A program made the translations under genes and the position numbers. From Bacteroidetes bacterium 41-46 (GTDB lineage: Bacteria; Bacteroidota; Bacteroidia; Bacteroidales; UBA932), in the NCBI GenBank assembly GCA_001897515.1, contig MKTA01000024.1, positions 124,001 to 188,000 of the forward strand: a stretch of DNA of 64,000 bases, in the 5' to 3' direction. This document shows positions 6,742 to 53,005 of this stretch, piece by piece (position 1 is the first letter of the stretch; each line of letters starts with the position of its first letter). The notes below the pieces were generated by a model that made no database searches, was not told the origin of the DNA, and was given only the letters and a program-made list of their open reading frames with translations.

Positions 6742-6841
6742 ATCTGTAATCTGTATCAGCACGGAAAATCCTCCCCATCTTTGATGGGTCCCCTCCCTGT
6801 TCGGGAGCCAACGTTTTCCTTAGCTGATACAGATTACAGAT
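6742..6841 (+). repeat. Palindromic element A, conserved core with private arms
   Basis: A perfect 19-bp inverted repeat (6742-6760 with 6823-6841) encloses a GC-rich core. The core has the CCTCCCC ... GGGTCCCCTCCCT ... TCGGG pattern shared with elements B and C. Inside it, CCCATC-TTT-GATGGG (6775-6789) and CTCCC-TGTTC-GGGAG (6793-6807) form two hairpins, and GGAAAA/TTTTCC adds an inner stem. It lies between the dipeptidase terminator and the 3' end of the nitrilase gene. The arm sequence is not found in the other copies. Strand is given by the core orientation. Confidence 0.85.
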
Positions 6842-6852
6842 TAATCAGTCTC

Positions 6853-7812
6853 TTATTTACACACATTTTGCTCCATCCAGGCAACCTTCTGTTCTGAAGT
6901 ATGCTCTCTGCCAATAATTTCAGAATAGAGTTCCGGTCGCCTTGCATTAGTATAACGATAACCACCGGCTAGAGTAATCTTATCAGAAGTCAGCTCAGCG
7001 GTGACCATTGAATCTCCAAGTTCCCGGCACTCTGCAATAATCTCTCCGTATGGGTCAAGTATCATTGAACAACCATTTTTAAGCTGGTCATCATCCATAC
7101 CTATCGGATTTGCAAATACGGCATAAATGGCGTTATCGTGCGCCCTTGAGGGGAGCCATCGCATCAGCCACTCCCTCCCTTTAGGACCGTCAAACTCCCT
7201 GCGGAGAGTATCGGCATTAGCCACCCTCTCCTTCCAAAGGGATGCATCAACAAACCCGGATCCCGGCCTAGCCGATGGTGTACACATTGTTACGTGTGGC
7301 ATAAAGATAATATCGGCACCAAGAAGCTTTGTAGCCCTCACATTCTCCACCACATTGTTATCATAACAGATAAGAATTCCGCACTGCCATCCTCGCAGTT
7401 TAAAAATTGTATATGAGTTTCCCGGTTTTACAGCCGGATTAATAAACGGGTGTATCTTTCTGTGCTTTGCAATAACCTCTCCTCCATCTACACACACATA
7501 TGCCTTATAAATATCGTTTACATCATCACGCTCAAACAGACCTGCCAACACAGCTATCCCGTACTTTGCAGAAATTTCTTTAAGCCGATTAACAGACGGG
7601 CCGTTAGGAATTTGTTCAGAGATATCGTACATCTCTGAGTGAGAAAGGTTTCTGGCAAATGTGTACCCCGTTACAGAGCACTCGTGAAAAGCTACTGCAT
7701 CAGCCCCTTCAGCCGCCGCTTTTGCAGCAAATTTTTCAATAACTCCCAGGTTATACTCTTTATCGCCGGAGCGATTTTCAAACTGGACTGTGGATATTTT
7801 TACACTCTTCAT
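6853..7812 (-). CDS. Nitrilase-superfamily carbon-nitrogen hydrolase
   Basis: Hydrolase of the nitrilase superfamily, 319 residues, attacking a non-peptide C-N bond (amide, nitrile or carbamoyl). The Glu-Lys-Cys triad is readable: Glu44 in AFHECSVTGY, Lys118 in KHRKIHPF and Cys148 in GILICYDNN. Cytosolic, no signal peptide. The substrate cannot be told from sequence. The gene stands alone on the minus strand between rightward genes and is bracketed by palindromic elements A (11 bases past its stop) and B (27 bases before its start). A TATTTTTG -7 box is 8 bases from the ATG, which would give a very short leader. The possibility that it moved with the elements is discussed in the findings. Confidence 0.88.
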   Translation of the reverse strand: MKSVKISTVQFENRSGDKEYNLGVIEKFAAKAAAEGADAVAFHECSVTGYTFARNLSHSEMYDISEQIPNGPSVNRLKEISAKYGIAVLAGLFERDDVNDIYKAYVCVDGGEVIAKHRKIHPFINPAVKPGNSYTIFKLRGWQCGILICYDNNVVENVRATKLLGADIIFMPHVTMCTPSARPGSGFVDASLWKERVANADTLRREFDGPKGREWLMRWLPSRAHDNAIYAVFANPIGMDDDQLKNGCSMILDPYGEIIAECRELGDSMVTAELTSDKITLAGGYRYTNARRPELYSEIIGREHTSEQKVAWMEQNVCK

Positions 7813-7819
7813 AGTTGAT

Positions 7820-7853
7820 CAAAAATAGTGAATATTCTAACTCCTTCTGCAAA
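7820..7853 (-). promoter_or_regulatory. Possible nitrilase promoter overlapping element B
   Basis: On the minus strand TATTTTTG (7820-7827) fits the -7 box. TTTG at 7850-7853 could be the -33 box, but the 22-base spacer is longer than the usual 19-20. That TTTG lies inside the left arm of element B, so the repeat may contribute promoter sequence. Confidence 0.35.
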
Positions 7854-7940
7854 CTGCCTCTGCATATACGCCTCCCCGTAAACGGGGTCCCCTCCCTCCT
7901 CGGGCGCGAGGTATCTGCAGAGGCAGTTTGCAGAAGGAGT
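7840..7940 (+). repeat. Palindromic element B, conserved core with private arms
   Basis: Perfect 25-bp arms (7840-7864 with 7916-7940) enclose a core of about 49 bases that starts ATAC and ends GTAT. The core carries hairpin CCCCGT-AA-ACGGGG, the conserved GGTCCCCTCCCT, and hairpin CCTCG-GGCG-CGAGG. It matches element C nearly base for base apart from the first hairpin loop and two single-base positions, and element A more loosely. The arms share no sequence with those of A or C. It sits between the divergent nitrilase and propeller lipoprotein genes; the rest of 7941-8071 shows no clear feature. Confidence 0.87.
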
Positions 7941-8071
7941 ACAAAGCTTATATTTAGATGAATGTTAACAACATCCAGGAGGTGTAAGTATTATTGTCAT
8001 TAAGAACTACATTTGAAAATAATTTTCACTATATTCGTTAGCTAGGTATAGAAACAATTAATTTTCATAAA

Positions 8072-9100
8072 ATGAGAATATCAGTATTATTACTCCTCGG
8101 ATTTTTCGTTATTCAATCTTGCAATATGAGAGAATCGAAATTTCCTATTGAGGAGAGAGTAACTCAGGAGCTGATGCCATTGGAGGGCTCTGTAGATCCT
8201 TTTATGATTGAGGTTAAGCAACCTTTTTTAGTTTTATTGAACTCTAAGAAGGAGGATAGCATCTTTCACTTTTACAATCTTTCTGAAAGAAAACTTGTAA
8301 ACATCTTTGGTGTTAAGGGAGAAGAATTGAAAGAGAGTTCAACCCCATGGAAATACAAAATTGGTGAGTTCATTCTCCCGATACTCCATAATGTACAGAG
8401 TGGAGATATATTGATTAGTGATGATATAAGAAGAGTAATTTACAGATTTGGGATTAACAAAGATGGTGTTTTCAATTTGAAAGAGAGAAGAAATTACAGC
8501 GATTCGGTAGACAATATGTTTCCGGCGGCTTTCATAAACGACACATTATATGCACTTGATGCAGAATATCAGGCTCCCAGTTTGTGGCTTATGTCTATAA
8601 ACAAAAAAGGTCCAATAATGGTTAAACAATATAGGAATCCTGATATATTTGACCAATATGCAGATCCCGATATGGGAAGAGTATATGCGAATGAGAGTCG
8701 TATTGCTCTGTGTTATGGCTGGAAAAAGAAGATTGACTTTCTGGATACTAACTTTAAACTCATAAGAAGCATTAATTATAAGTTTGATGATACTGTTGAT
8801 ATAACAACGGAAAATGAAGATGATGTAAAAGCCACCTATGTTTATGGCTATTTTGGTAAGAGATATTTTTACACAGTATTTTTTGGAAAATCCTGGAAAG
8901 AGCACAGGAAGACATTTAGCGGAACGACACTGGAGGTTTACGATTTGGATGGCAATCCTGTTGCAAAATATATATTTGATGGAATAAGCCCATCCCGCTT
9001 TGTTGTTGATGAGAGTACATTCACTCTGTATGGAACAATTGACAGATACTCTGAGCTAAAGAATTTTCTAGTTGTGTACAAACTCAAGGGACTATCCTAG
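8072..9100 (+). CDS. BF3164-like beta-propeller lipoprotein
   Basis: 342-residue predicted lipoprotein: MRISVLLLLGFFVIQSC is a signal peptide ending in a lipobox (Cys17). The rest is a run of beta-strand blocks of about 45-50 residues with recurring YDLDG, RVIYRFGI and SLWLMSINK type strands, which fits the six-bladed TolB-like propellers of the BF3164 family found in Bacteroidetes. No enzymatic motif is seen; such proteins may bind peptides or glycans at the cell surface. Convergent with the next gene (15-base gap). Base composition is AT-richer than the neighbours, mainly in the coding third positions. The family call is moderately sure. Confidence 0.65.
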   Translation: MRISVLLLLGFFVIQSCNMRESKFPIEERVTQELMPLEGSVDPFMIEVKQPFLVLLNSKKEDSIFHFYNLSERKLVNIFGVKGEELKESSTPWKYKIGEFILPILHNVQSGDILISDDIRRVIYRFGINKDGVFNLKERRNYSDSVDNMFPAAFINDTLYALDAEYQAPSLWLMSINKKGPIMVKQYRNPDIFDQYADPDMGRVYANESRIALCYGWKKKIDFLDTNFKLIRSINYKFDDTVDITTENEDDVKATYVYGYFGKRYFYTVFFGKSWKEHRKTFSGTTLEVYDLDGNPVAKYIFDGISPSRFVVDESTFTLYGTIDRYSELKNFLVVYKLKGLS

Positions 9101-9115
9101 GTGGATAATTGAATA

Positions 9116-10462
9116 TCACTGATATCCAAGAGGTGTATATATAAATAAATTGGGACGGGAGTTTGAGTCGCCGGGGCGGTATCTTCTGGTTGAGATCAAG
9201 ACAACACCGGAGAGCGATTTGTAAAGGAGCCCGTCATTGCCGTTAAGGACTATCAGAGTCTCAACATCTCTTATATCCATCCCTTTTAGCGCAGGGAACT
9301 CCAGATCATCATCATTATATCTGACACCGTCAACATAGATGATTGTTTTATTGTATGATGGAGAGCCACCACTTCCCTTTGTAGTAATTGATCTCCTTGA
9401 ATATAGATAATCATTAAATGCAAAAAAAGAGGGGTAATTTGCAACAATGTATTCCAAAACAGATTTGTGGTCATCTCTCTTCAAATCCTCCCGCTCCTTT
9501 ACGCTTCTCCTCTCAAAGGCGTTTCCAAATGGAGAGGGGTTAATCTTTGGTCTGTATAGTCCGTTAATCTGCTTTCTGTCAACAATAACCTTTACGGCAT
9601 CCAGTTTTATTACTCCCGATGTGTCGTACAGGATTACCGGAGATGAATTGTCTGATCTCTCTGTAATATTTCCCGATTCATTACTATAAAGAGACAAATA
9701 ATCATAATAGGGCGCAAAAGTCTCTTGCAGACAAACCGGATAATATCTCTTTTTGCCGCTCAGGTCAGTAGCCTTGATAATATACTGAGTCCCTTCAGGA
9801 GTATCCAGTTCGGTAATCAGAAAATTGACAGGGTTATTTTTCACTGTTGCCTGCCTGGTAAAGCCGGTCTGTGGTGAGAAAACATCCAGAATATAACTGT
9901 CAACTCTTTTGCCTGAAGCATTTTCTACCCACCCCTCAATATAGTGGGAAGACTCTTTCAAATAGGATTTTGGTTTATTCTCTTCAATTGACTTATTTGT
10001 AGTATAATCAGCAATGGAAAAAGTGCTCCTCCCCGGAGTAAATGGTTCATTCGGCTTAATTATACTTATTTTGGTAAAAAACAGATCTTCCGTTGGTTCG
10101 TTTAACATATACCGGGTGTAAGCTCTTACAATATAATCTCCATACGGCAGATCTCCCCTGAGAGGAAAATAACCTCTAAACCCCTCATCAGATCCCCCTT
10201 TACTATCCTCTTTCTCACTCTTTTCATCTCTCTTTATCTTTACCCTGGCTATCACGCTATCCTTAAGAAGCTCAATATAGATATAGTTGCTTCTGATATT
10301 AGAATAACCGGCATCGCTATCAAAAACAGAGGCTTTAAACCTTATTGTATCACCGGGAATAAAGTATGCTCTGTTTAGCTTAAGAGTGAGAACCTCTTTT
10401 GCTGTGAGGGAATTCACAACAATGAAAAATACAATTGAGATAACTAAACATTTAGCGTTCAC
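9116..10462 (-). CDS. Secreted MG2-like / TonB-plug-like protein, possibly C-terminally shortened
   Basis: 448 residues with a signal peptide (MNAKCLVISIVFFIVVNSLTA). Residues 25-135 look like a macroglobulin MG2 domain (LKLNRAYFIPGDTIRFKASV, then GDLPYGDYIVRAYTRYM). A middle beta region follows, and near the end a TonB-receptor plug-like segment (IIYVDGVRYNDDD, DVETLIVLNG, SGVVLISTRR). Relatives in Bacteroidetes are usually longer and, as I recall, continue past TPLGYQ with more sequence; here a TGA follows directly after LGYQ. A truncated relative or a natural short form are both possible. Function is unknown; the plug-like region suggests an envelope partner, not a transporter, since no barrel is present. 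Confidence 0.6.
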   Translation of the reverse strand: MNAKCLVISIVFFIVVNSLTAKEVLTLKLNRAYFIPGDTIRFKASVFDSDAGYSNIRSNYIYIELLKDSVIARVKIKRDEKSEKEDSKGGSDEGFRGYFPLRGDLPYGDYIVRAYTRYMLNEPTEDLFFTKISIIKPNEPFTPGRSTFSIADYTTNKSIEENKPKSYLKESSHYIEGWVENASGKRVDSYILDVFSPQTGFTRQATVKNNPVNFLITELDTPEGTQYIIKATDLSGKKRYYPVCLQETFAPYYDYLSLYSNESGNITERSDNSSPVILYDTSGVIKLDAVKVIVDRKQINGLYRPKINPSPFGNAFERRSVKEREDLKRDDHKSVLEYIVANYPSFFAFNDYLYSRRSITTKGSGGSPSYNKTIIYVDGVRYNDDDLEFPALKGMDIRDVETLIVLNGNDGLLYKSLSGVVLISTRRYRPGDSNSRPNLFIYTPLGYQ

Positions 10463-10539
10463 TTCCCCTTTTTAAGTATATTCTATTATGATGCAATTTA
10501 AACAAAAATGTTTTACATCGCACTAAAAATACAGATAAT

Positions 10540-10585
10540 GCCTCAGAGCGCAGCAGGAAGCGGAGGCAGGGCGAGGCGAAGTAGC
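10540..10585. other. GC-rich imperfect hairpin island downstream of clpX
   Basis: An isolated GC-rich stretch in an AT-rich intergenic region. GCCTC at 10540-10544 pairs with GAGGC at 10563-10567, and the block continues with GGGCGAGGCGAAG. It contains no ORF and does not match the core of elements A-C. I cannot assign it. Confidence 0.35.
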
Positions 10586-10591
10586 CAAGTC

Positions 10592-10618
10592 AAAAAAAAA
10601 GAGGCCTAAGCCTCTTTC
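10592..10618 (-). terminator. Intrinsic terminator of the tig-clpP-clpX operon
   Basis: On the minus strand AAAGAGGC-TTA-GGCCTCTTTTTTTTT forms a short stem with a nine-T tail. The stem spans the clpX stop codon, so the final codons (Lys-Glu-Ala-stop) are part of the hairpin. Confidence 0.8.
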
Positions 10619-11841
10619 ATCATCTGCAACGCCCCGGTGAACTTGGCCACCTTCTCTCTGGCGTAGGGGAGTTTGATTGTCAGACTCTTTTTGTTCTGAG
10701 ATGGGGTTTCGTACATTGCGTCAACCATTATGGCTTCACAGATTGACCTTAATCCCCGTGCCCCAAGTCTAAACTCTATTGATGTATCTACAATATAGTC
10801 AAGCACCTCATCATCAATACTCAACTTAACACCATCCATTTCAAATAATCTGAGATACTGTTTAACCAGTGCGTTTTTAGGTTCAGTAAGAATACTCCTC
10901 AACGCCTTTCTGTCAAGTGGCTCCAGATAAGTTAAAACAGGCAGTCTCCCAATAATCTCAGGAATAAGGCCGTATGCCCTCAGATCCTGAGGAGCAATAT
11001 ATCTCATAAGGTTCTCCCTGTCAATATGCTCGGTCTTATGTGCTGCTCCGTAACCTACAACTTGTGTATTAAGCCTTTGAGAAATTTTTCTCTCTATACC
11101 CTCAAAAGCTCCCCCGCAAATAAAGAGAATATTCTTAGTGTCAACAGCTATCATCCTCTGCTCAGGATGTTTTCTTCCTCCCTGGGGCGGAACATTCACA
11201 ACACTTCCCTCAAGAAGCTTTAGCATCGCCTGCTGAACACCCTCACCAGAGACATCCCTTGTTATTGACGGGTTGTCCCCTTTCCTCGCTATTTTGTCAA
11301 TCTCATCAATAAAGACTATTCCCCTCTGAGCCCTCTCAACGTCATAATCTGCCTCCTGCAACAACCTTGTAAGGATACTCTCAACATCTTCTCCAACATA
11401 GCCTGCCTCTGTAAGGACAGTTGCATCCACAATAGTAAACGGAACATCCAGCATCTTTGCTATGGTTCTGGCAAGAAGCGTTTTGCCTGTTCCGGTTCTT
11501 CCAACAAGAAGTATGTTTGACTTTTCAAGGTCAAGATCATCTCCGTTGTTACCGTTTATCCTTTTGTAATGGTTATAGACTGCAACAGAAAGATATTTCT
11601 TTGCCTCCTCCTGACCAATTACATAATCGTCAAGGAAAGCTGTGATCTCTTTTGGTTTGAGAAGGGGTTTTGCCGATGTTTTCCTCTTTCCCTTTTTTGC
11701 GGCAAGGGCCTCTCTGGAATAATCTATAGCCTGTTGAGCGCACTCGTTACAGATAGATGCAATTTCACCTGCAATAAGTACATCAACCTCACTCTTTCCC
11801 CTTCCGCAAAAAGAGCAGTAGTCTGTGTATTTGGAGGCCAT
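10606..11841 (-). CDS. clpX: ATP-dependent Clp protease ATP-binding subunit ClpX
   Basis: AAA+ unfoldase that feeds substrates to ClpP. 411 residues. The N-terminal zinc-binding domain has two Cys pairs (CSFCGRGK and CNECA). Then come Walker A GRTGTGKT, pore loop GYVG, Walker B FIDEIDK, the ClpX signature [14 protein letters not shown] and the RKH loop (GGRKHP). At the ClpP-docking IGF position the sequence reads VGY, a variant to be aware of. The ATG directly follows the clpP stop with no spacer, so translation is coupled. Third gene of tig-clpP-clpX. Confidence 0.98.
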
Positions 11842-12513
11842 CTACTTCTTTGCTTTAATAAGAATTTCGTCTATCATCCCGTACTCCTTCGCCTCCTTTG
11901 CATTCATCCAGTAATCTCTGTCGGCATCTTTCTCAATCTGCTTCAGAGGCTTGCCGGAATGCAGTGCTATAATTTCATACAACTCCTTTTTAAGAGTCAC
12001 TATCTGCTTTGCAGTTATCTCAATATCGCTTGCCTGACCCTCTGCTCCTCCCATAGGCTGATGTATCATAACCCTTGAGTGAGGAAGCACAGAGCGCTTT
12101 CCTGTAGCACCTGCAGTAAGCAGGACAGCCGCCATTGAGGCAGCCATACCGGTACAGATTGTTGCTACATCAGAAGAGACAAGCTGCATAGTGTCATAAA
12201 TACCCAAGCCGGCATAGACTCCGCCCCCCGGTGAATTTATGTAGAGCTGAATATCTGATTTTGACTCTGTGGAATCTAGGTAGAGTAACTGAGCCTGGAT
12301 AATATTGGCTACATCGTCTGTGATGGGTACTCCCAGAAAGATGATTCTGTCCATCATCAAACGCGAGAAGACGTCCATTGCAGCTACATTAAGCTGTCTC
12401 TCCTCAATAATTGTAGGATTGATGTATGCGCCGCTTATTGAGTTAAATCTGTGCAAAGAGAGGCTGCTTATTCCCCTGTGATGCATAGCATATTTTTCAA
12501 AATCTGTAGCCAT
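11842..12513 (-). CDS. clpP: ATP-dependent Clp protease proteolytic subunit
   Basis: Serine protease that assembles as a double heptamer and degrades unfolded substrates supplied by ClpX. 223 residues, typical for Bacteroidetes. Catalytic Ser126 lies in GMAASMAA and His151 in VMIHQPMGG; the third residue is an Asp in the DRDYWM motif near residue 200. The glycine-rich INSPGGGVYAG segment forms the substrate groove. 18 bases separate it from tig upstream. Confidence 0.98.
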   Translation of the reverse strand: MATDFEKYAMHHRGISSLSLHRFNSISGAYINPTIIEERQLNVAAMDVFSRLMMDRIIFLGVPITDDVANIIQAQLLYLDSTESKSDIQLYINSPGGGVYAGLGIYDTMQLVSSDVATICTGMAASMAAVLLTAGATGKRSVLPHSRVMIHQPMGGAEGQASDIEITAKQIVTLKKELYEIIALHSGKPLKQIEKDADRDYWMNAKEAKEYGMIDEILIKAKK

Positions 12514-12531
12514 ATATTGTAAACTTTAATT

Positions 12532-13860
12532 TTAGTTTGTCATTTCCCTGAGCTTCTCAACAGAGACGCTCTTCTTATCAAGTTTTACGACAGACCTTAC
12601 ATAGCCTATTACTTTGTCCTCTTCTACTTTATCAAAGATTCTTTTGCCCTCTTTTTCGTTTGAAAGAAGAGACTCAGCATACTGATTGAGTTGTTCTTCA
12701 GGAACGTTAGGCAGTCCGTACATTGCAAACTGATACGCTGCAATATTCTTAGCCTGCGCCAGAAGATCCTCTCTCTTCACCTCAAGTTTCTGCTCCTTAA
12801 CAAAGTACTGTCTTATCATCTGCCAGCGGAAGTCTTTAAGAAACAGGTGGAAATCCTTCTCAATATCCTCCATAGAGAACTTGCCCTCATTAGCTGTAAA
12901 CAACCATCTCTTCAGAAAGTTCTCAGGAACAGCTATGGCCGCCTTTTCAATCAGGTAATCTCTTGCATCAAGCATAAATCTGTAGTCGCTCTCCTGGGCA
13001 TACTCTGCTCTCATTCGCTCAACAACCTTAGCATCAAACTCCTCCTCGGTTGAAACAACACCCTCTCCAAACATCTTATTATACAGCTCCTGATTAACTT
13101 CAGGCTCTATAAATCTTTTAACCTCTTTAACTGTAAGGCTCCAAACTGGTTCAACGGATGCAAGCTCCTCTTTCTTAACTTTCAGAAGTGCGGCTCTGTC
13201 TGCCTCATTAGCAAAGGCTTTGTTCACATCAACATCAAATGTGTCTCCACTCTTCTTGCCCATGAACTGCTTTTTTATCTTCTTATCCTCAATTGACCTT
13301 AAAGCAACATATGTGCCCTCAATCTTTGTCTCACCCTGAAGGAGATCTGCAATGATAAAATCTTCGTCCTGCTCAATTGAATCAACAACTCCAAGCTGAC
13401 CAAACTGCCTCAAAACATTTGATTTATATTTAGCAATTTCCTCTTTAGAGAGCTCTGCCTCATAGTATGCAATCATATCATCTGCTGAGAGAGCAATCTC
13501 CACCTTTGGAGCAAGCGCAATATCAAATATAAACTCCATATCCTCGCCAGCCTTCCAGCTTACAGGCTTCTGCTCTGTTTCATTAGCCAACGGCTCTCCG
13601 ATAATATTAAGCTTATTTTCATTGATATAGTTGTTCAGACCTTCAGATATTAGATTATTCACGGCATCCACCATTGCAGACTGACCATGCATCTTCTCAA
13701 TCATAGACATAGGAGCCATACCCTTGCGGAAACCTTTGATGTCTGCATTTCTGCGGTAGTCTCCCAGTATCTTTTTAACTTTTGGAGCATAATCATCGTT
13801 TCCTATGGTAAGAGAAACCATAAGCGTTAGATCTTCAGCTTGTTTCTGTGTAACTTTCAT
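12532..13860 (-). CDS. tig: Trigger factor
   Basis: Ribosome-associated chaperone that meets nascent chains at the exit tunnel. 442 residues. The N-terminal ribosome-binding domain carries the degenerate signature GFRKGMAPMSMIEK (residues about 41-54). The central region corresponds to the FKBP-like PPIase fold but is poorly conserved, as is usual in Bacteroidetes, so peptidyl-prolyl activity may be absent. The charged C-terminal arms are helical. First gene of the tig-clpP-clpX operon, a common arrangement. No convincing promoter could be read in the 69 bases upstream, which also hold the tRNA-Leu terminator. Confidence 0.95.
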   Translation of the reverse strand: MKVTQKQAEDLTLMVSLTIGNDDYAPKVKKILGDYRRNADIKGFRKGMAPMSMIEKMHGQSAMVDAVNNLISEGLNNYINENKLNIIGEPLANETEQKPVSWKAGEDMEFIFDIALAPKVEIALSADDMIAYYEAELSKEEIAKYKSNVLRQFGQLGVVDSIEQDEDFIIADLLQGETKIEGTYVALRSIEDKKIKKQFMGKKSGDTFDVDVNKAFANEADRAALLKVKKEELASVEPVWSLTVKEVKRFIEPEVNQELYNKMFGEGVVSTEEEFDAKVVERMRAEYAQESDYRFMLDARDYLIEKAAIAVPENFLKRWLFTANEGKFSMEDIEKDFHLFLKDFRWQMIRQYFVKEQKLEVKREDLLAQAKNIAAYQFAMYGLPNVPEEQLNQYAESLLSNEKEGKRIFDKVEEDKVIGYVRSVVKLDKKSVSVEKLREMTN

Positions 13861-13888
13861 CGTTTATTATGTTTTGTATTATCTCTAA

Positions 13889-13925
13889 TAAAATCAAAGC
13901 AGACCACCCAATGGGTATCTGCTTT
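13889..13925 (-). terminator. Hairpin terminator after tRNA-Leu
   Basis: On the minus strand AAAGCAGA/TCTGCTTT plus ACCC/GGGT form an interrupted 12-bp stem with an ATT loop, followed by a T-rich tail. It lies 5 bases beyond the tRNA 3' end and before tig. Confidence 0.65.
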
Positions 13926-13929
13926 TGAG

Positions 13930-14011
13930 TGCGGGCAAAGGGACTCGAACCCCCACGCCTTTCGGCACCAGATCCTAAGTCTGGCGCGGCTACCAATTAC
14001 GCCATGCCCGC
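13930..14011 (-). tRNA. tRNA-Leu (anticodon UAG)
   Basis: 82-nt class II tRNA. The acceptor stem GCGGGCA pairs with TGCCCGC, followed by discriminator A. The anticodon stem CCAGA/TCTGG holds the loop CTTAGGA with anticodon TAG, reading CUN leucine codons. A long variable arm (TGCCGAAAGGCG) and the T-arm GGGGGTTCGAGTCCC confirm the class. The 3' CCA is not encoded. Confidence 0.97.
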
Positions 14012-14022
14012 TTTGGGGAGTG

Positions 14023-45101: not shown

Positions 45102-45107
45102 ACCAAA

Positions 45108-45764
45108 ATGGCTACTCTAATAGCTCCGTCAATGCTCTCTGCAGACTTCGGCAAACTTGCCGCAGATGTTCAGATGGTGAATGAAAGCGATGCAGACATT
45201 TTCCATCTTGATATTATGGATGGCCTCTTTGTCCCAAACATATCCTACGGCTTCCCTGTAGTTGATGCCATCTCCAGACTTGCAAAAAAACCACTTGATG
45301 CACATCTTATGATTGTTGACCCTGACAGGTATGTAGAGAGATTTGCTCAATCCGGAGTAAAGTATCTCAGTGTACATATTGAAGCCTGTACACATCTCCA
45401 CAGAACTCTTCAGAACATAAGGGAGAGGGGTATGAAAGCGGGGATAGCCCTAAATCCACATACGCCGGCATCACTGCTGAAGGATATTCTTCCCGATGCG
45501 GATTTTGTCCTTGTAATGTCAGTAAATCCTGGATTTGGAGGACAAAAATTTATTGAATCTTCTCTGGAGAAGATAAGTGACATCAGAGAGATGGCCCTTA
45601 AAAGGGCTCCGCATCTGTTAATTGAGGTAGATGGCGGGGTAAACAAAGAGAATGCCCCTCTTCTGGTGAAGGCAGGGGCAGATATTCTTGTTGCAGGAAA
45701 CAGCATCTTTTCAACCCCCTCTCCCGCAGAAGCGGTGAGAGAGTTAAAAAGCATCTGCTGCTAA
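45108..45764 (+). CDS. rpe: Ribulose-phosphate 3-epimerase
   Basis: Pentose-phosphate enzyme interconverting ribulose 5-phosphate and xylulose 5-phosphate. 218 residues, a TIM barrel. Metal ligands are in HLDIMDGLFVPN and DAHLMI, with SVNPGFGGQKFI and EVDGGVNKEN as the phosphate-side and catalytic Asp motifs. Converges on birA with one base between the stops. Confidence 0.97.
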   Translation: MATLIAPSMLSADFGKLAADVQMVNESDADIFHLDIMDGLFVPNISYGFPVVDAISRLAKKPLDAHLMIVDPDRYVERFAQSGVKYLSVHIEACTHLHRTLQNIRERGMKAGIALNPHTPASLLKDILPDADFVLVMSVNPGFGGQKFIESSLEKISDIREMALKRAPHLLIEVDGGVNKENAPLLVKAGADILVAGNSIFSTPSPAEAVRELKSICC

Positions 45765-45765
45765 A

Positions 45766-46512
45766 TCAGATTATATATTTTATCTCCTTAAAGGCATACG
45801 AGGAAACCGTTCCATCCAGCTTCTCTATCTGCAGACAGGCGTTTTTATCAGTACCAATAATTCTGCCCTCAAATATTTCACCGGAAGGGGTCTCCTGGAA
45901 TTTGTGCAACTCCTCATATCTGTAAAGATTTCTGTGATACATGGAGGAGATTTTTTCAGATATGCTTCCCCATGAGAAGTTCTTAAATGGAATGTAAAGG
46001 TCATAAAGGAAGAATGCCAGTTTCTCCATCTCCTCCTTTAGGTCATACCTCTCACCGGTAACCATTTTAACAGATACAGGGTTAGGAGCGTTAGATTCAA
46101 ATTTATCCTGATTCAGGTTAAGTCCAATGCCAACAATTGATCCTGACAAAGTGTCACCCTCAATTGTGTTCTCAATCAGTATTCCGGCCACCTTTTTATT
46201 GTTGATATATATATCATTAGGCCATTTAATCTTAGCCTCTATACCCTTACTCTTTAGATATTCAAATACCCCCACTGCTGCGATTTGAGAAATAATAAAC
46301 TGATTTTCAGCTTTTATCATCTCAGGTTTAAGCACAAGTGAGAATGTGAGATTGGTGCCTTTGGCGCTCTCCCAAGAGGTCCCCTTTTGTCCCCGCCCTT
46401 CTGTCTGGTATTCAGCGGCAAGAATAGTAAAGTCAGTCAGCTCCGCAAACCTTCTAAGTGCCTCTTTGTTAGTGGAATCAGTGGATTCAAGCCAAATAAT
46501 GTCAATTGCCAT
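45766..46512 (-). CDS. birA: Biotin-[acetyl-CoA-carboxylase] ligase, no DNA-binding domain
   Basis: Attaches biotin to the carrier protein of biotin-dependent carboxylases. 248 residues, starting directly with the catalytic domain (IIWLESTDSTNKEAL), so it cannot act as a biotin repressor. GRGQKGTSW binds biotinyl-AMP, and the catalytic Lys is in IKWPNDIYINNKKVAGILIE. A C-terminal SH3-like domain follows. Divergent from rsfS. Confidence 0.95.
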   Translation of the reverse strand: MAIDIIWLESTDSTNKEALRRFAELTDFTILAAEYQTEGRGQKGTSWESAKGTNLTFSLVLKPEMIKAENQFIISQIAAVGVFEYLKSKGIEAKIKWPNDIYINNKKVAGILIENTIEGDTLSGSIVGIGLNLNQDKFESNAPNPVSVKMVTGERYDLKEEMEKLAFFLYDLYIPFKNFSWGSISEKISSMYHRNLYRYEELHKFQETPSGEIFEGRIIGTDKNACLQIEKLDGTVSSYAFKEIKYII

Positions 46513-46584
46513 ATCAATAAAAGTTTAAATTGGTCACAAAATTGCAGTATTTTTACAAGAAATTACGAAAAAACGACAATTATT

Positions 46585-47001
46585 GTGCCAGTAAAGAAGA
46601 CTACAACAAAAAGAGTAAAGGCTTCAGAGAAGCCGGAAGTAGAAAAAATTCAGACAGAAGAGAATGAACTAAAGTGCATAGCAGAAGCAATGCTTGACAA
46701 AAAGGCCCAGGCTGTTTGTTCTATGGACTTGAGAAAAATCGGAACCGCAATTACTGACCACTTTGTAATATGCAATGCAGATTCTGCCCCGCAGGTAATA
46801 GCAATAGCTGATAATATTGAGGAGCAAATGCTTGTAAAGTGCAACAGGAAGGTTGTCAGGTCACAGGGTAAGGAGAATGCATTCTGGATTATTATGGACT
46901 ATACGAATATAGTGGTTCACATATTCAAAACAGAGTACAGGCAGTTCTACAGGCTTGAAGAGCTCTGGGCTGACGCTGAAAAGACAAACTATCAAGACTA
47001 G
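46585..47001 (+). CDS. rsfS: Ribosomal silencing factor RsfS
   Basis: Binds ribosomal protein L14 and blocks subunit joining when nutrients run low. 138 residues from the GTG at 46585. The open frame extends back to 46387, but that part is antisense to birA and not family-like, so the GTG start is preferred. The conserved core is residues 28-125 (AEAMLDKKAQAVCSMDL, TDHFVICNADSAPQV, DNIEEQM, WIIMDYTNIVVHIF). The Lys-rich first 20 residues are an extension. Five bases separate it from ftsH; the rsfS-ftsH-cdsA-psd order appears to form one transcript. Confidence 0.93.
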   Translation: MPVKKTTTKRVKASEKPEVEKIQTEENELKCIAEAMLDKKAQAVCSMDLRKIGTAITDHFVICNADSAPQVIAIADNIEEQMLVKCNRKVVRSQGKENAFWIIMDYTNIVVHIFKTEYRQFYRLEELWADAEKTNYQD

Positions 47002-47006
47002 GAAAA

Positions 47007-48950
47007 ATGAGCGAAGAGAACAGAAACAATATCAACAAGAAGTTTACAAATATAAAGCCTCAGAAATTTAACAGTCTGTGGATTATTTTGATAATTCTTA
47101 CCGGTATCGCAATCATGTGGAACTCCTATCAGGGAGGGGAACCGGTAAAAACTGAGTGGTTTACCATAAAAGAGAAGATGATCCCTCAGGGTGACATTGA
47201 GAAACTTGTGTTTGTTACCAATCAGAATACAGCTGAGGTTTTTATCAGAAAGGACAGCCTGTACAAATACAAAAACAAATTTGGAGGTAAAGAGCCAAAG
47301 TTTGGTCCTCAGTTCTACTTTATAGTGTCCGGCAACTTCAATCTGGAGGAGCAGGTTGATGCAGTAATGGCAGGAATTGAACCTGAAAAGAGATTTGCTG
47401 TAGAGACAGAGCAGAGAACAAACTACTTTGGAAAGGCACTGGAATGGCTGTTATTACCGCTAATGCTTATAGGGCTTTGGATATTCTTCTTCAGAAGAAT
47501 GAACAAATCTATGGGAGGCGGAGGGTCACAGGGAGGCGGAATCTTCTCTGTTGGCAAATCTCAGGCAAAACTATTTGACCGCGACAACAACGTCAAGGTG
47601 ACCTTCAAGGATGTTGCCGGACTGGAGGAGGCCAAGGTAGAGGTCATGGAGATAGTTGATTTCCTTAAAAATCCAAAAAAATATACAAATCTTGGAGGAA
47701 AAATACCAAAAGGGGCACTGCTGATAGGCCCTCCCGGCACTGGTAAGACTTTGCTTGCAAAGGCAGTGGCAGGAGAGGCAGATGTACCCTTCTTCTCAAT
47801 TTCAGGTTCAGACTTTGTAGAGATGTTTGTGGGAGTAGGTGCCTCAAGGGTTAGAGACCTCTTCAGACAGGCAAAAGAGAAGGCTCCATGTATAGTTTTC
47901 ATTGACGAGATAGACGCAGTTGGAAGGGCAAGGGGTAAGAATGCAGGTTTCTCCTCTAATGATGAAAGAGAGAACACTCTCAACCAACTTTTAACAGAGA
48001 TGGACGGTTTTGGCTCAAATTCGGGCGTTATTATACTTGCTGCTACTAACAGGGCCGACATACTTGACAAGGCTTTGATGAGGGCGGGGAGATTTGACCG
48101 ACAGATACATGTAGACCTGCCGGAGCTTAAGGAGAGGATGGAGATTTTCAAGGTACATCTCAGAAATCTTAAACTTGTAGAGGGATTTGACATAGAGTTT
48201 CTTGCAAAACAGACTCCCGGTTTCTCCGGAGCCGATATTGCAAATGTCTGCAACGAGGCTGCACTGATAGCAGCAAGAAACAACAAAGAGTTTATTGAGA
48301 AGCAGGACTTCCTTGATGCAGTTGACAGAATAATTGGAGGACTTGAGAGAAGAAGCAAGATAATCTCTCCTGAAGAGAAGAGGACTATCGCCTTCCACGA
48401 GGCAGGTCATGCAACTGTCAGCTGGATGCTTCCTCACGCAAATCCGCTGCTAAAGGTTACCATTATTCCAAGGGGTAGAGCTCTGGGAGCAGCATGGTAT
48501 CTGCCGGAAGAGAGACAAATTACTACAACAGAGCAGATGATGGACGAGATGGCCGCAACTCTTGGTGGAAGAGTTGCTGAGGAGATTGTGAATGGAAAAA
48601 TATCCACAGGTGCCCTTAGCGACCTTGAGAAGATCACAAAGCAGGCATATGCAATGGTATCCTATTTAGGAATGAGCAAAGAGGTTGGAAACATCTCTTT
48701 CTACGACTCCTCTGAATCAGCCGGATTCAATCTTGGAAAGCCATATAGTGAAAAGACTGCAGAGTTGATTGACGCAGAGGTTAAGAGAATAATAGAAGAG
48801 GCATACAAAATGGCCAGAAAGGTTCTTACAGAAAATAGAGAAGGTTTTACCAAGCTGGCAGAGCTTCTGCTGGAAAAAGAGGTTATCTTTGCAGAGGATC
48901 TTGAGACCATTTTTGGCAAAAGAGCAGGAAAGCAACCTATAGAGAAGTAA
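47007..48950 (+). CDS. ftsH: ATP-dependent zinc metalloprotease FtsH
   Basis: Membrane-anchored AAA+ protease for quality control of membrane and short-lived proteins. 647 residues. Two membrane segments (about 22-40 and 145-165) flank a periplasmic domain. Walker A is GPPGTGKT (near 240), Walker [10 protein letters not shown], the SRH region has [21 protein letters not shown], and the zinc motif is HEAGH (near 464) with a downstream Asp in GALSDLEK. It lacks the long acidic tail of some homologues. Its stop overlaps the cdsA start (TAATG). Confidence 0.98.
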
Positions 48951-49780
48951 TGAATAACACAGTTGTGAGGACATTGAGCGGACTGGTATTCCTATTAATA
49001 ATGATAGGCTCTCTGCTCATTGGCCCCATAGCTTATGCAATCGTAATGCTGTTCATTATTGGGGTGGTCATGCATGAATATCTTGAAATAAGTCTGGGCA
49101 ACAGCTTCAGATACTCCAGGATGCTGGCCATTTCAACAGGACTATCTCTCTTTCTGATACTCTTTCTAATACTAGAGTACAAAATTGAGGTAAAACTTCT
49201 TCTTTTAACGTTATTGCCTTTGACTGCCACATACATCTCTCTTTTGTGGAGCAATTCTCCTGACTACTATCAGCGAAACCAGTATCTTGCAGGTTCAGTA
49301 TTGTATGCTGCACTTCCATTTGCTCTGACTACTCTAATAGTTTACAAAGAGGATGGTACCTTTGACGGCTCAACGCTGCTCCTTTTCTTTGCCATACTAT
49401 GGATATCTGATATAGGGGCGTATGTTTTCGGCATGCTCTTTGGCCAGAAAAACGGTCATAAACTATTCCCTTCAATCTCACCAAAAAAATCATGGGAGGG
49501 TTTCTGGGGTGGACTTATCTCGGCACTAATACTGGCGACAGCAATTTATCTGACAGGGTGGTCGGACTTTAACCTCTTCCACACATTAGTAATTGCGCTA
49601 ATAATTAATATCGCCAGTGTTCTCGGAGATCTGGCCGAATCTCAGTTCAAGAGAAGTTTCGGAGTCAAAGACTCCGGTTCGCTTATGCCGGGCCACGGAG
49701 GTCTGCTTGATAGATTTGACGGTGCCCTTACCTCCTTTCCTATTGCAATAGCATACATTAAACTCCTTTCACTTTTTTAA
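48950..49780 (+). CDS. cdsA: Phosphatidate cytidylyltransferase
   Basis: Inner-membrane enzyme making CDP-diacylglycerol, the precursor of phosphatidylethanolamine and phosphatidylglycerol. 276 residues with about eight membrane segments. The C-terminal signature is present: KDSGSLMPGHGGLLDRFDG, with SPKKSWEGFWGG before it. Placed next to psd, which acts further along the same pathway. Confidence 0.96.
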   Translation: MNNTVVRTLSGLVFLLIMIGSLLIGPIAYAIVMLFIIGVVMHEYLEISLGNSFRYSRMLAISTGLSLFLILFLILEYKIEVKLLLLTLLPLTATYISLLWSNSPDYYQRNQYLAGSVLYAALPFALTTLIVYKEDGTFDGSTLLLFFAILWISDIGAYVFGMLFGQKNGHKLFPSISPKKSWEGFWGGLISALILATAIYLTGWSDFNLFHTLVIALIINIASVLGDLAESQFKRSFGVKDSGSLMPGHGGLLDRFDGALTSFPIAIAYIKLLSLF

Positions 49781-49782
49781 AC

Positions 49783-50442
49783 ATGAAAATTCACAAAGAG
49801 GGATACAAAATAATATTCAATAGCTTTTTAATTCTTGCTCTGCCTGTAGTGGTCGTCTCCTTTTTTTTCCCAGGCAGCAGAGGGTTCTGGTATCTGCTGA
49901 CAGCTGCAATTATCTTTTTTATTTTAATTGTAAGATTCTTCAGATTTCCGGCAAGAGAGCCCAATATTGACAGTACAGCTGTAATTGCCCCTGCAGATGG
50001 CAAGATTGTAATAGTTAAACAGGTTTATGAAGGAGAATTCCTTAAGCGGGAGTGCATTCAGGTTTCTGTATTCATGAATGTCTTCAACGTACATATAAAC
50101 TGGTTTCCGGTAAAAGGGCTGGTTAAATATTATAAATACCACCCTGGAAGGTATCTTGTGGCAATGCATCCAAAATCCTCGGAAAAGAATGAGAGAACAA
50201 CAATAGTCGTTGAGAACGAACGTGGTATAGTCCTCTTCCGTCAAATTGCAGGATACCTGGCAAGAAGGATAGTATGCTACGCAAAAGAGGGGGAAATGGC
50301 AGATCAGGGAGATCAGGCCGGATTTATAAAATTTGGATCAAGGGTAGATCTATTTCTACCATTAGATGCCAGAATTCAGGTAACTAAGGGACAAAAGGTA
50401 AAGGGAAGGCAAACAGTAATTGCAAAGTTATCAGACAACTAA
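49783..50442 (+). CDS. psd: Phosphatidylserine decarboxylase (short, Psd-B/archaetidyl type)
   Basis: Makes phosphatidylethanolamine from phosphatidylserine. 219 residues. The pyruvoyl group is formed by self-cleavage at Gly185-Ser186 in IKFGSRVDLFLP. VFMNVFNVHINWFP and YHPGRYLVA are family motifs. An N-terminal hydrophobic pair (about 10-50) anchors it to the membrane. Converges on pyrF, sharing 4 bases. Confidence 0.96.
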   Translation: MKIHKEGYKIIFNSFLILALPVVVVSFFFPGSRGFWYLLTAAIIFFILIVRFFRFPAREPNIDSTAVIAPADGKIVIVKQVYEGEFLKRECIQVSVFMNVFNVHINWFPVKGLVKYYKYHPGRYLVAMHPKSSEKNERTTIVVENERGIVLFRQIAGYLARRIVCYAKEGEMADQGDQAGFIKFGSRVDLFLPLDARIQVTKGQKVKGRQTVIAKLSDN

Positions 50443-51245
50443 ATTCCTGCAGAATTAAGATATTCAGACATCTCAAGGGCGGCTTCGGCTGCCCTTTTTT
50501 CTGCTGCTACGGCAAAATTCTCACCCTTTCCGGCAAAAATAATATTTCTGGAAATATTAACCAGAAGTCCGCATTTAGAGTTCATTCCTGCTGCAGCAAC
50601 CTCTGCGATTGTGCCTCCCTGAGCACCAACACCCGGAACAAGAAAGAAGTGATCAGGAGCCAAAGATCTGATTTCAGCAAGCCTTTCAGGGCGAGTAGCT
50701 CCCACTACAAACATAAGTTTATCTGACGAACCCCACTCAATGCCTTTAGCAATAACTTTTTTATATATATCAAGTTCAAAATCAACAGCCGACTCATTAG
50801 ATGTAAGTGCCAGTAGAATAGCCCATTTATTCTCAAATTTCAGGAATGGCTCAACAGAGTCCCTGCCCATATATGGAGCCAGTGTTACGGCGTCAGCATC
50901 CATTTTTTCAAAAAAGGCCCTGGCATATCTGTCAGCGGTGTTACCAATATCCCCTCTCTTTGCATCGGCAATTATAAAAAGAGTCGGATCAACACTGCGA
51001 ATATACTCTACAGTCCTCTCAAGCTGCTCCCAGCCAGATGCCCCTTCTGCCTCATAGAACGCCAGATTCGGTTTGAATGCGACAGCATATTTATGTGTGG
51101 CATCAATAATTGCCTTATTGAACTTGAAAATTGAATCTTTTTCCGATGCAACTGAAGCCGGAAAAAGGGAAGGGTCAGAATCAAGACCCACACAGAGGAA
51201 GCTCCTCTTTTTAACAATATACTGAAAAAGCTGCTCTCTGTTCAT
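50439..51245 (-). CDS. pyrF: Orotidine 5'-phosphate decarboxylase (type 2)
   Basis: Last step of UMP synthesis. 268 residues, the longer type 2 form. Catalytic Lys and Asp residues are in IIADAKRGDIGNTADRYA, VGLDSDPSLFP is the N-terminal motif, and LVPGVGAQGGTI binds phosphate. Six bases separate it from the prfA stop, so they probably share a transcript. Confidence 0.96.
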   Translation of the reverse strand: MNREQLFQYIVKKRSFLCVGLDSDPSLFPASVASEKDSIFKFNKAIIDATHKYAVAFKPNLAFYEAEGASGWEQLERTVEYIRSVDPTLFIIADAKRGDIGNTADRYARAFFEKMDADAVTLAPYMGRDSVEPFLKFENKWAILLALTSNESAVDFELDIYKKVIAKGIEWGSSDKLMFVVGATRPERLAEIRSLAPDHFFLVPGVGAQGGTIAEVAAAGMNSKCGLLVNISRNIIFAGKGENFAVAAEKRAAEAALEMSEYLNSAGI

Positions 51246-51251
51246 AACAGA

Positions 51252-52337
51252 TTATTCTCCTGACTCCTTAAGTCTCTCTGCATTCTCAGCAATCTGCAGA
51301 AGATCAATTACCTCCTGAATTGCTCCATCCATAAAGACAGGGAGATTATACATTGTATAATTTATTCTATGGTCTGTAACTCTTGACTGGGGGTAATTGT
51401 ATGTTCTAATCTTAGCAGATCTGTCACCAGTTGACACCATTGTCTTCCTTTTGGCAGATATCTCATTAAGATACTTTTCATACTCAAGGTTATAAAGACG
51501 AGTTCTTAGTTCAGCCAAAGCCTTGTCATAGTTCTTAATCTGAGATTTTTCATCCTGGCACTGTACAACTATTCCAGTAGGCATATGGGTTAGCCTGATA
51601 GCTGAATATGTAGTGTTCACAGACTGACCTCCCGGCCCGGAAGAGCAGAAGGTGTCCTTTCTTACATCATTTATATTCAACTCAATATCAAACTCTTCTG
51701 CCTCCGGAAGAACTGCAACTGAGGCAGCAGATGTGTGTACCCTACCCTGAGTCTCGGTCTGCGGGACACGCTGAACACGATGTACTCCGCTCTCATACTT
51801 AAGGACACCGTAAACACCGTTACCGGATATCTTACAGATTACCTCCTTAAAACCTCCTGAAGTTCCCTCACTCTGGCTATTAATCTCCAGTTTCCATCCC
51901 CTCCTCTCAGCAAACTTAGCATACATCCTGAAAAGGTCTCCTGCAAATATTGATGCCTCATCTCCTCCTGCTCCGGCCCTGATCTCCACAATTGCATTTT
52001 TAGAATCCTGCGGATCTGCCGGAATCAAAAGCAGCTTAATCTCCTCCTCCATTGCAGGCATTGCCTCCTCAATTATTGAGATCTCCTCTTTCGCCATCTC
52101 TCTTAACTCCTCATCCTTCTCATTTTGTATAATATCCTTAGCATTCTCCAGATCTATTACCATCTTACGGTACTTGTTACCCGCCTCAACAAGAGGTTCC
52201 AGCTCTCTGTACTCCTTATTAAGAGAGACATACCTCTTCATATCCGACATCACTGCCGGATCTGATATCTGGGCTGCAATGCTCTCATATTTTTCCTTAA
52301 GCCCCTCCAGTTTGGAGTATAGATTATTATCGCTCAT
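51252..52337 (-). CDS. prfA: Peptide chain release factor 1
   Basis: Releases finished chains at UAA and UAG. 361 residues. The GGQ motif is in SSGPGGQSVNTTYSAIR, and the codon-recognition tripeptide is in HRVQRVPQTETQGRVHTS (Pro-x-Thr type). The N-terminal 100 residues form the helical domain. Both motifs are intact. Confidence 0.97.
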   Translation of the reverse strand: MSDNNLYSKLEGLKEKYESIAAQISDPAVMSDMKRYVSLNKEYRELEPLVEAGNKYRKMVIDLENAKDIIQNEKDEELREMAKEEISIIEEAMPAMEEEIKLLLIPADPQDSKNAIVEIRAGAGGDEASIFAGDLFRMYAKFAERRGWKLEINSQSEGTSGGFKEVICKISGNGVYGVLKYESGVHRVQRVPQTETQGRVHTSAASVAVLPEAEEFDIELNINDVRKDTFCSSGPGGQSVNTTYSAIRLTHMPTGIVVQCQDEKSQIKNYDKALAELRTRLYNLEYEKYLNEISAKRKTMVSTGDRSAKIRTYNYPQSRVTDHRINYTMYNLPVFMDGAIQEVIDLLQIAENAERLKESGE

Positions 52338-52391
52338 AATTCATTTTCAAATTGGATGCAAAATTAGTGAAATTAGTTGATTCCCGGAATT

Positions 52392-52856
52392 TTATTCAGA
52401 AGCTTCTCTTTTATATCTGATTCTCAAAATATTCTTATCAGGATCAAAGTCTGAAGATATAATTTTTACACCTCCAATTTCAGACGTGTTTTTCACATGC
52501 AACCCAATGCAGGGACAGTGGTCATAATCTCCCACAGAGATTATTCTTACAATATCACCTGCCTCCGGAGGGAGCTTATCTGTGTTAACCCTCATTTCCG
52601 CCTCCTCTCTGGAGAGATACGATTCTCTCACTTCAAGATTCAGAGATATAATTCTGTTAACCTCCGTTTCAAGCCCTGCAATCTCCTCCGTAGTCAAAGC
52701 CCTTTCAATCTTGTAATCAACCTTTGATTTCTTTTTTTCTATGTGGTTACTCACAGACCTACCCGTTCTAAACATCCTCACCATTGTCTGGTTAATAATA
52801 TGCTCAGCTGTATGCATAGGGGCGTTGTAATCTTTTTTGGGCTCGTTTATATCCAT
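52392..52856 (-). CDS. AlaX-like tRNA editing domain protein
   Basis: Stand-alone homologue of the alanyl-tRNA synthetase editing domain (tRNA_SAD), 154 residues, likely hydrolysing Ser-tRNA-Ala or Gly-tRNA-Ala. The zinc site shows as HTAEH (residues about 16-20) and CPCIGLH (about 114-120), the His-x3-His and Cys-x-x-x-His pairs. The synthetase body is absent, as in AlaX proteins. It lies 55 bases beyond prfA upstream in the same orientation, with palindromic element C just before it. Substrate specificity is not proven. Confidence 0.85.
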   Translation of the reverse strand: MDINEPKKDYNAPMHTAEHIINQTMVRMFRTGRSVSNHIEKKKSKVDYKIERALTTEEIAGLETEVNRIISLNLEVRESYLSREEAEMRVNTDKLPPEAGDIVRIISVGDYDHCPCIGLHVKNTSEIGGVKIISSDFDPDKNILRIRYKREASE

Positions 52857-52903
52857 AGTAATTATAGTTTGCCTGTAAAGTTAATTATTTTGCAAGAGTC
52901 TTT

Positions 52904-53005
52904 GCTCTTCTCAGGGGGATGACATGATGATACCTCGTGCCCGAGGAGGGAGGGGACCCCGTGAAACGGGGAGGTGTATCATCATGTCATCCCCCTGAGA
53001 AGAGC
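52904..53005 (-). repeat. Palindromic element C, conserved core with private arms
   Basis: Perfect arms of 30 bp (52904-52933 with 52976-53005) flank a core that on the minus strand reads as element B: hairpin CCCCGT-TTC-ACGGGG, then GGTCCCCTCCCT, then hairpin CCTCG-GGCA-CGAGG. The last four bases of the inner arm (GATAC/GTATC) are also in B and may belong to the core. The outer 25 bp of the arms are unique. It lies between the AlaX-like gene and the hcp terminator; the remainder of 52857-53107 shows no ORF. Confidence 0.87.

What the first reader, a model, noticed from the sequence alone, without database searches (positions are those of the whole stretch)
6742..53005. Palindromic element family: conserved two-hairpin core inside long arms unique to each copy
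Three intergenic copies (6742-6841, 7840-7940, 52904-53005) share a core with the CCTCCCC-hairpin-GGTCCCCTCCCT-TCGGG pattern. B and C are almost identical over about 49 bases; A is divergent but keeps the fold. The first hairpin differs by compensated changes (CCCATC/GATGGG in A against CCCCGT/ACGGGG in B and C). Each core is enclosed by perfectly complementary arms of 19, 25 and 30 bp whose sequences are unrelated among copies, with no mismatch or G-U pair. Ordinary MITE or REP elements have conserved ends; here the ends are private and only the middle is shared. Possible explanations: inverted duplication of flanking target DNA when the core inserts, template-switch correction of an imperfect palindrome, or a structured RNA whose stem drifts. 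The absence of mismatches favours a DNA-level copying process. I do not recognise this element.
Basis: partly seen in the sequence, partly recalled or inferred. Interest (0 to 1): 0.82.

Follow-up and report, generated by a model that had tools for sequence, protein, structure and literature searches.

The report
Mobile DNA palindrome with flipping core
A small mobile DNA palindrome found in one family of Bacteroidales keeps a fixed centre while its two arms drift yet stay complementary and its centre sometimes flips over, a natural record of how copying errors may reshape inverted repeats.

Summary
Copies A (6742-6841), B (7840-7940) and C (52904-53005) have perfect arms of 19, 25 and 30 bp around a shared core. 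They belong to a dispersed family of palindromes of about 100 bp: 49 of 219 genomes of the window's family, up to 18 copies, and no hit outside that family in an order survey. Rfam has no match for the window copies at gathering score.

"Private arms" holds only partly: within a genus or amplified subfamily arms are shared, so they travel with the element. At orthologous sites arms drift but stay largely complementary. In the 11 pairs with clearly related arms, 17 changes are mirrored and 27 one-sided in 280 stem columns; about one mirrored change would be expected by chance.

New: the core is inverted relative to its flanks in 9 of 22 orthologous clusters; 6 have recognisably the same arms, and 4 of those have both flanks swapped. 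Arm homogenisation plus spacer inversion is the published signature of template switching between inverted-repeat arms. Copies lie between convergent genes in 42 of 72 classified cases, and some lie in frame inside genes (miaA, truB, dnaX).

I read it as a REP/RPE-like selfish palindrome reshaped by template switching. Its transposase was not found.

The parts
6742..6841 (+). Copy A, complete palindrome (type A core)
   Evidence: model R1 E=2.9e-15 (the model was built with this copy included)
6742..6760 (+). Copy A left arm, 19 bp, perfectly complementary to 6823-6841
6823..6841 (-). Copy A right arm
6771..6807 (+). Copy A core: hairpin 1 (6774-6788) and hairpin 2 (6793-6807)
   Evidence: folds
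7840..7940 (+). Copy B, complete palindrome (type B core), 25-bp perfect arms; identical in relatives G011 and G024
7840..7864 (+). Copy B left arm (25 bp)
7916..7940 (-). Copy B right arm
52904..53005 (-). Copy C, complete palindrome (type B core on the minus strand), 30-bp perfect arms
52904..52933 (+). Copy C outer arm at the low-coordinate end (30 bp)
52976..53005 (-). Copy C outer arm at the high-coordinate end
6853..7812 (-). Carbon-nitrogen hydrolase gene between copies A and B (context, not part of the element)

Best explanation
These are copies of a small, non-autonomous, mobile palindromic repeat restricted, as far as surveyed, to one Bacteroidales family. The core of about 45 nt is the conserved part; I infer that it is what the still unknown mobilising enzyme recognises, as hairpins on one DNA strand. 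The arms came with the element but carry no required sequence. After insertion, DNA polymerase template switching between the arms (or an equivalent hairpin-based repair) from time to time copies one arm onto the other. Arms therefore drift at least as fast as surrounding DNA yet stay largely complementary, and the same process, or recombination between the arms, sometimes inverts the core. Shown: dispersal, shared arms within lineages, mirrored arm changes, core inversion relative to flanks, in-frame location inside genes. Inferred: the template-switch step itself, the single-stranded intermediate and the transposase.
For: Dispersed family: 16 of 25 genus genomes; 49 of 219 family genomes, up to 18 copies. 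Shared arms: genus; ten G119 copies. Mirrored changes: in 16 hand-picked orthologous pairs from 13 loci, 51 mirrored and 41 one-sided among 396 stem columns; keeping only the 11 pairs (9 loci) whose left arms are recognisably related, 17 mirrored and 27 one-sided among 280 columns (my sum), where independent change would give about 1 mirrored (my arithmetic). Arm helix 92.7% paired, 5 of 6 pairs with changes on both sides; covariation score 0.315 against shuffled mean 0.120, 0 of 500 as high. Core 482/504 identical, left arms 235/274, flanks 72-100% in 12 pairs. Core inversion in 9 of 22 clusters: clusters 1, 12, 13, 14, 16 and 20 with related arms, of which 1, 13, 14 and 20 have both flanks swapped. 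Clearest: L076/L297, one flank 100% identical over 840 bp. Own-genome copy at C23 is inverted relative to G011 and G024, with 3 mirrored arm changes and 2 one-sided ones at the outer end against G011. Precedent PMC8604942. MiaA of L118 has 75 extra residues where the two stretches matched to the solved homologue 2qgn meet.
Against: One-sided mismatches outnumber mirrored ones in the strict subset (27 to 17), so homogenisation is not immediate. In 20 of 36 scored orthologous pairs the arms are not recognisably related (strict threshold): strong drift, replacement or independent insertion. Three of the nine flipped clusters (9, 15, 19) are among these and may be separate insertions. Two of the five measures do not exceed the shuffles (74 and 267 of 500 as high). 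Isolated outer-arm mismatches are 22 A.C/C.A against 9 G.T/T.G (p=0.029), a strand bias that pure DNA correction does not predict; the inner arm shows none, 3 against 3. No empty site shows a clean insertion with target duplication; site A in G022 looks like a deletion remnant. No gene family recurs next to the element. Most loci are metagenome assemblies, where short inversions could be assembly errors.
Confidence: 0.58

Rival explanations
1. A functional structured RNA (the strand carrying GGCTCCCGAAAAGGGAGGGGACCCACGAAGTGGGGAGGA) whose long stem is kept by compensatory mutation.
For: Covariation; outer-arm mismatch bias consistent with G-U pairs on that strand; on that strand hairpin 1 has a C(GNA)G loop in 70 of 140 copies and hairpin 2 a GAAAA or GAAGA loop in 122 of 140; that strand has the lower folding energy in 4 of 4 copies tested with DNA and RNA parameters, though z-scores against shuffles are mostly similar for both strands.
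Against: No Rfam match at gathering score in the window; below-threshold hits over the elements are mainly long-hairpin miRNA models. Core flips relative to flanks. 42 of 72 classified copies lie between convergent genes; co-directional copies show no orientation bias, 15 against 11. Inside genes in both core orientations. The same strand preference would arise if a protein reads single-stranded DNA.
Confidence: 0.14
2. A REP-type element mobilised by a RAYT/TIRYT tyrosine transposase acting on single-stranded hairpins (a more specific version of the best explanation).
For: Y1 transposase-like genes in 22 of 25 genus genomes; two of those looked at lie next to their own long perfect palindromes (L304 upstream, L307 on both sides), like the TIRtrons of PMC3733652 (passages); strand-specific loop pattern.
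Against: A profile from five RAYT-like proteins finds only one match in 329 loci, a partial ORF in L066 about 1.7 kb from the core and not flanking it. No gene family recurs next to the element. Y1 genes also occur in genomes without the element (G007, G021).
Confidence: 0.25
3. Inverted duplication of flanking target DNA at each insertion creates the private arms.
For: G022, which lacks B, has sequence resembling the outer left arm of B; G022 keeps 16 bp of the left arm of A, with one difference, at an otherwise empty site.
Against: Arms are shared by dispersed copies within the genus and in ten G119 copies; the retained A segment resembles the genus arm consensus, so a deletion remnant fits better.
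Confidence: 0.08
4. Core inversions are assembly errors or independent insertions, and mirrored arms come from alignment choice.
For: Most loci are from metagenome assemblies; several copies lie at contig ends; one search selects the best-paired columns of hand-picked pairs; the pair with most mirrored columns (L050/L125, 11) has left arms that are not significantly alike.
Against: Four clusters have both flanks swapped around related arms; in L076/L297 the flip goes with the loss of one arm mismatch, which a simple mis-join would not give; L026/L032 shows 3 mirrored and 0 one-sided changes and L068/L149 5 and 0, the latter with left arms just at the threshold.
Confidence: 0.13

Closest known systems
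Rickettsia palindromic elements (RPE)
   Same: Dispersed palindromic repeats (about 150 bp in PMC10969869, passages; about 100 bp here) that also lie in frame inside housekeeping genes.
   Different: Different phylum; only the core is conserved and the arms drift; most classified copies are intergenic; no CGTC tag, which PMC3733652 reports for R. conorii RPEs. Sequence homology was not tested.
REP/BIME elements with RAYT transposases
   Same: Small palindromes mostly downstream of genes, one copy holds an IS with an rve integrase as IS1397 does in REPs, Y1 transposase genes in the genomes.
   Different: No GTAG/CGTC tag next to the hairpins, 0-18 copies per genome, not flanking a RAYT gene.
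Template switching between inverted repeats (quasipalindrome mutation)
   Same: Both listed outcomes, arm homogenisation and spacer inversion, fit changes seen at orthologous loci.
   Different: In the part of PMC8604942 read, the cases are yeast inverted repeats with arms of 7-16 bp; here it would act repeatedly on one mobile family with arms of 20-30 bp.
MITEs
   Same: Short, non-coding, inverted-repeat mobile DNA.
   Different: Terminal sequences are not conserved across the family; no related autonomous element or target duplication was found.

Membership tests
REP (GTAG or CGTC super-family) | Unpaired GTAG or CGTC tag next to a short hairpin (CGTC families: 8-9-bp stem) | tested here: not met
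   Core hairpins have 5-6-bp stems and no GTAG/CGTC tag; definitions from PMC3733652 passages
REP with RAYT | Cognate RAYT gene flanked by the repeat | tested here: not met
   RAYT profile: 1 match in 329 loci, a partial ORF 1.7 kb from the core in L066; no recurrent neighbour gene among 158 copies (14 largest clusters printed). Unfetched copies not examined
REP | High copy number, usually over 100 per genome (PMC2817692 abstract) | tested here: inconclusive
   0-9 per genus genome, at most 18; but PMC3733652 counts families of 20-100 units or fewer as REPs
Rickettsia palindromic element | Palindrome in frame within functional genes | tested here: met
   5 of 10 tested ORFs have known domains: DnaX, SpoU, MiaA, NamZ, TruB; extra residues against solved homologues in the three compared
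Rickettsia palindromic element | Sequence homology to an RPE family | not tested
   RPE sequences were not fetched
MITE | Conserved terminal inverted repeats, target site duplication and a related autonomous IS | tested here: not met
   Arms unrelated between lineages; no recurrent neighbouring transposase; target duplication not resolved
Rfam structured RNA families | Match above gathering score | tested here: not met
   window; window 6700-8000 and one L087 copy at E<=10, none reaching gathering score
Template-switched inverted repeat | Arm homogenisation and spacer inversion at orthologous sites | tested here: met
   6 clusters with inversion and related arms
Template-switched inverted repeat | Direct observation of the event in growing cells | not testable with these tools
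   needs an experiment

The most novel reading that the evidence does not exclude
A selfish palindrome whose only inherited sequence is its loop: the arms are rewritten from each other again and again, and the core flips in place often enough to differ between close relatives, perhaps even inside coding genes such as truB, where opposite core orientations both keep the frame open and give different inserted peptides. If orientation varies within populations, it would act as an enzyme-independent inversion switch driven by replication.
Probability: 0.23. Interest if true: 0.72.

Novelty: new variant of a known kind. Interest (0 to 1): 0.5.

Why it matters
Template switching between inverted repeats is known from mutation assays and genome comparisons. 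This family supplies many orthologous loci with a fixed, orientable core between freely drifting arms, so rates of arm correction and of spacer inversion could be measured in nature. It also shows that in-frame palindromic insertions, known from Rickettsia, occur in a distant phylum, and it gives a defined core sequence with which to look for the enzyme that moves it.

Tried and rejected
Rfam family: none at gathering score in the window; low-score hits over the elements are mainly miRNA models, which I take to reflect the long hairpin. Virus, plasmid or phage origin: the exact core pattern had 0 hits in viral contigs; blastn of copy C against plasmids and of the L087 copy against phages found nothing. 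RAYT in cis: only four of eight queries were true RAYT-like proteins (four were wrongly picked ORFs); one search repeats it with a profile from five and finds one match, in L066, 1.7 kb from the core. Inverted target duplication: not general (see rivals). Site C as an empty site: relatives carry different repeats there, so not informative. IS in the core: the full IS end was found in one genus genome (G013), in the core; two G001 contigs that start with about the last 12 bases of the same end are also in the core but came from a core-based search; a related end in G004 is not in the element. Its long ORF has rve domains; the short ORF has no Pfam hit, so 'IS3-type' is my label from recall.

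Selection effects. Core 'conservation' is inflated because copies were collected with a core pattern. The 16 pairs were hand-picked; I left out pairs whose arms looked unrelated or were cut short (among them L050/L123, L083/L109, L103/L135, L077/L099, L066/L146, L109/L148, L026/L042, L056/L138). Several pairs share a locus (three for the C23 locus, two for L068). ORF-based counts are approximate: of 140 copies 72 were classified, 28 lay inside an ORF, the rest could not be classed. Pfam was run on 10 of those 28 and found known domains in 5. One search dropped 15 of 157 copies for low score or an off-centre stem.
Full report
OBSERVATION. Their longest perfect arm runs are 19, 25 and 30 bp. Copy A folds as a long stem closed over two hairpins; C forms hairpin 1 with a different second hairpin; in B the predicted plus-strand core fold pairs differently. 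A strict core pattern is found three times in the 2.47-Mb genome and the reversed control none. Copy A has an 86% match over its positions 5-96, arms included, elsewhere in the same genome.

DISTRIBUTION. A core pattern occurs in 18 of 60 genomes, 17 of them in the window's genus, own genome included. I recall these as GTDB family UBA932; no call says so. A covariance model from 50 copies matches 16 of 25 genus genomes with 1-9 copies each, 49 of 219 family genomes with up to 18 copies, and 5 of 393 order genomes, all five in the same family. Surveys over 40 genomes used stricter filters and scored few candidates per genome, so counts are lower bounds. The pattern has no hit in viral contigs; single-copy blastn found none in plasmids or phages.

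ARMS. Over 157 distinct copies, 142 stems could be scored: median 28 paired bases, 26 without any mismatch or gap. Arms are lineage-specific rather than copy-specific: genus copies share an arm consensus near the core, and ten G119 copies, three of them at contig ends, carry nearly the same arms. At orthologous sites some arm changes are mirrored. In 16 hand-picked pairs from 13 loci, 396 stem columns held 295 unchanged, 51 mirrored, 41 unpaired in one copy and 5 in both (the best-paired block was chosen, which under-counts one-sided changes at the ends). In the 11 of these pairs (9 loci) whose left arms are recognisably related, the counts are 229, 17, 27 and 4 of 280; independent change would give about one mirrored column (my arithmetic). 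L026/L032 shows 3 mirrored and no one-sided change; L068/L149 shows 5 and 0, with left arms just at the threshold. The 11 mirrored columns of L050/L125 rest on arms that are not significantly alike. Of 36 scored orthologous pairs in the 22 clusters, 16 have related arms by this strict test and 20 do not; 2 more were too short. Over 12 pairs the core is 482/504 identical and the left arm 235/274, with flanks 72-100%. Isolated outer-arm mismatches are 22 A.C/C.A, 9 G.T/T.G and 10 others; the inner arm has 3, 3 and 7.

CORE INVERSION. With copies oriented by core, flanks of orthologous copies should match side to side. In 22 orthologous clusters from 158 copies, 9 contain a copy whose flanks are swapped, 4 of them on both sides. 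In 6 of the 9 (clusters 1, 12, 13, 14, 16, 20) a flipped pair has related arms; the other three may be independent insertions. The clearest is L076 against L297: one flank 100% identical over 840 bp, the other 92%, the core exactly inverted between the arms, and one arm mismatch resolved. The window genome's own copy on contig C23 is inverted relative to G011 and G024. Arm homogenisation plus spacer inversion is what PMC8604942 lists for template switching between inverted repeats (part 1 of 7 read).

CONTEXT. Of 140 copies, 72 had classifiable neighbours: 42 convergent, 26 co-directional (15 and 11 by core orientation), 4 divergent; 28 more lay inside an ORF (crude ORF calling). Of 10 such ORFs tested, 5 have known domains: DnaX, SpoU methylase, MiaA, NamZ and TruB. 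Against solved homologues, MiaA of L118, which holds two tandem copies, has 75 extra residues where its two matched stretches meet (the N-terminal match is weak, 9.7 bits, but covers the P-loop), TruB of L126 about 63 extra and SpoU of L120 about 80 extra. TruB of L096 and L126 carries the element at about the same place with opposite core orientation, though their arms are unrelated. This resembles Rickettsia palindromic elements (PMC10969869 passages).

MOBILITY. Site A lacks the element in G011 and G024, and G022 retains only a left-arm segment. Site B is present and identical in G011 and G024. An insertion sequence with an rve integrase (Pfam; 'IS3-type' is my label) sits in the core in L042 with ATC on both sides, as IS1397 does in REPs (PMC1525189 passages). 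Y1 transposase-like genes are common in the genus (22 of 25), but a RAYT profile finds only one match in 329 held loci, in L066, 1.7 kb from the core, and no gene family recurs in more than 6 of 158 loci.

STRAND. I recall GNA loops as unusually stable in single-stranded DNA and GNRNA loops as boxB-like in RNA; neither was tested. That strand has the lower folding energy in 4 of 4 copies tested under DNA and RNA parameters, but z-scores against shuffles are mostly similar for both strands. This suits recognition of one folded strand by a protein, or an RNA, without deciding between them.

LITERATURE. Nine searches on palindromic repeats in Bacteroidales or Bacteroidetes, RAYT, template switching, IS1397, mini-hairpins, Rickettsia elements and Cryptobacteroides listed no paper whose title or abstract opening describes this element. 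Papers were seen as passages (PMC2817692, PMC3733652, PMC1525189, PMC10969869), abstract and outline (PMC6649704) or part 1 of 7 (PMC8604942). Subscription journals are mostly not held and preprints not at all.

VERDICT. A new family of a known kind (small selfish palindromes) with an unusual evolutionary behaviour. The step from pattern to template switching is inference, and the mobilising enzyme is unknown.

Noticed in passing
L220 and L246 (relatives of site C, about 52900-53050): A second kind of repeat with a conserved core (TTTTTCCTCCTCGCTC..CGTTCGCTGTGGCGGAGACTCC); in L220 it sits inside long near-complementary arms, the same architecture as the element studied.
   Followed up: no
L042 77-1497 (= L330); starts of L023 and L038: Insertion sequence with an rve integrase inserted in the palindrome core, with ATC on both sides.
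   Followed up: partly
L304, L307 flanks of Y1 transposase-like genes: RAYT-like genes in this genus lie next to their own long perfect palindromes, unrelated in sequence to this element.
   Followed up: partly
L066 7662-7998: Partial RAYT-like ORF about 1.7 kb from an element copy, the only such match in 329 held loci.
   Followed up: partly
L196, L217 (nitrilase upstream region in G001, G023): Perfect inverted repeat of about 21 bp enclosing a terminator-like hairpin at the place corresponding to site B.
   Followed up: no
L315-L324 (genome G119): The palindrome appears embedded in a larger composite repeat with further repeated segments beyond the arms (by eye).
   Followed up: no
L019, L030: Copies broken at the hairpin-2 loop near contig ends; insertion or assembly break not resolved.
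   Followed up: no
window 6700-6738: Terminator-like hairpin with T-tract just upstream of copy A; similar hairpins lie next to several genus copies (by eye).
   Followed up: partly
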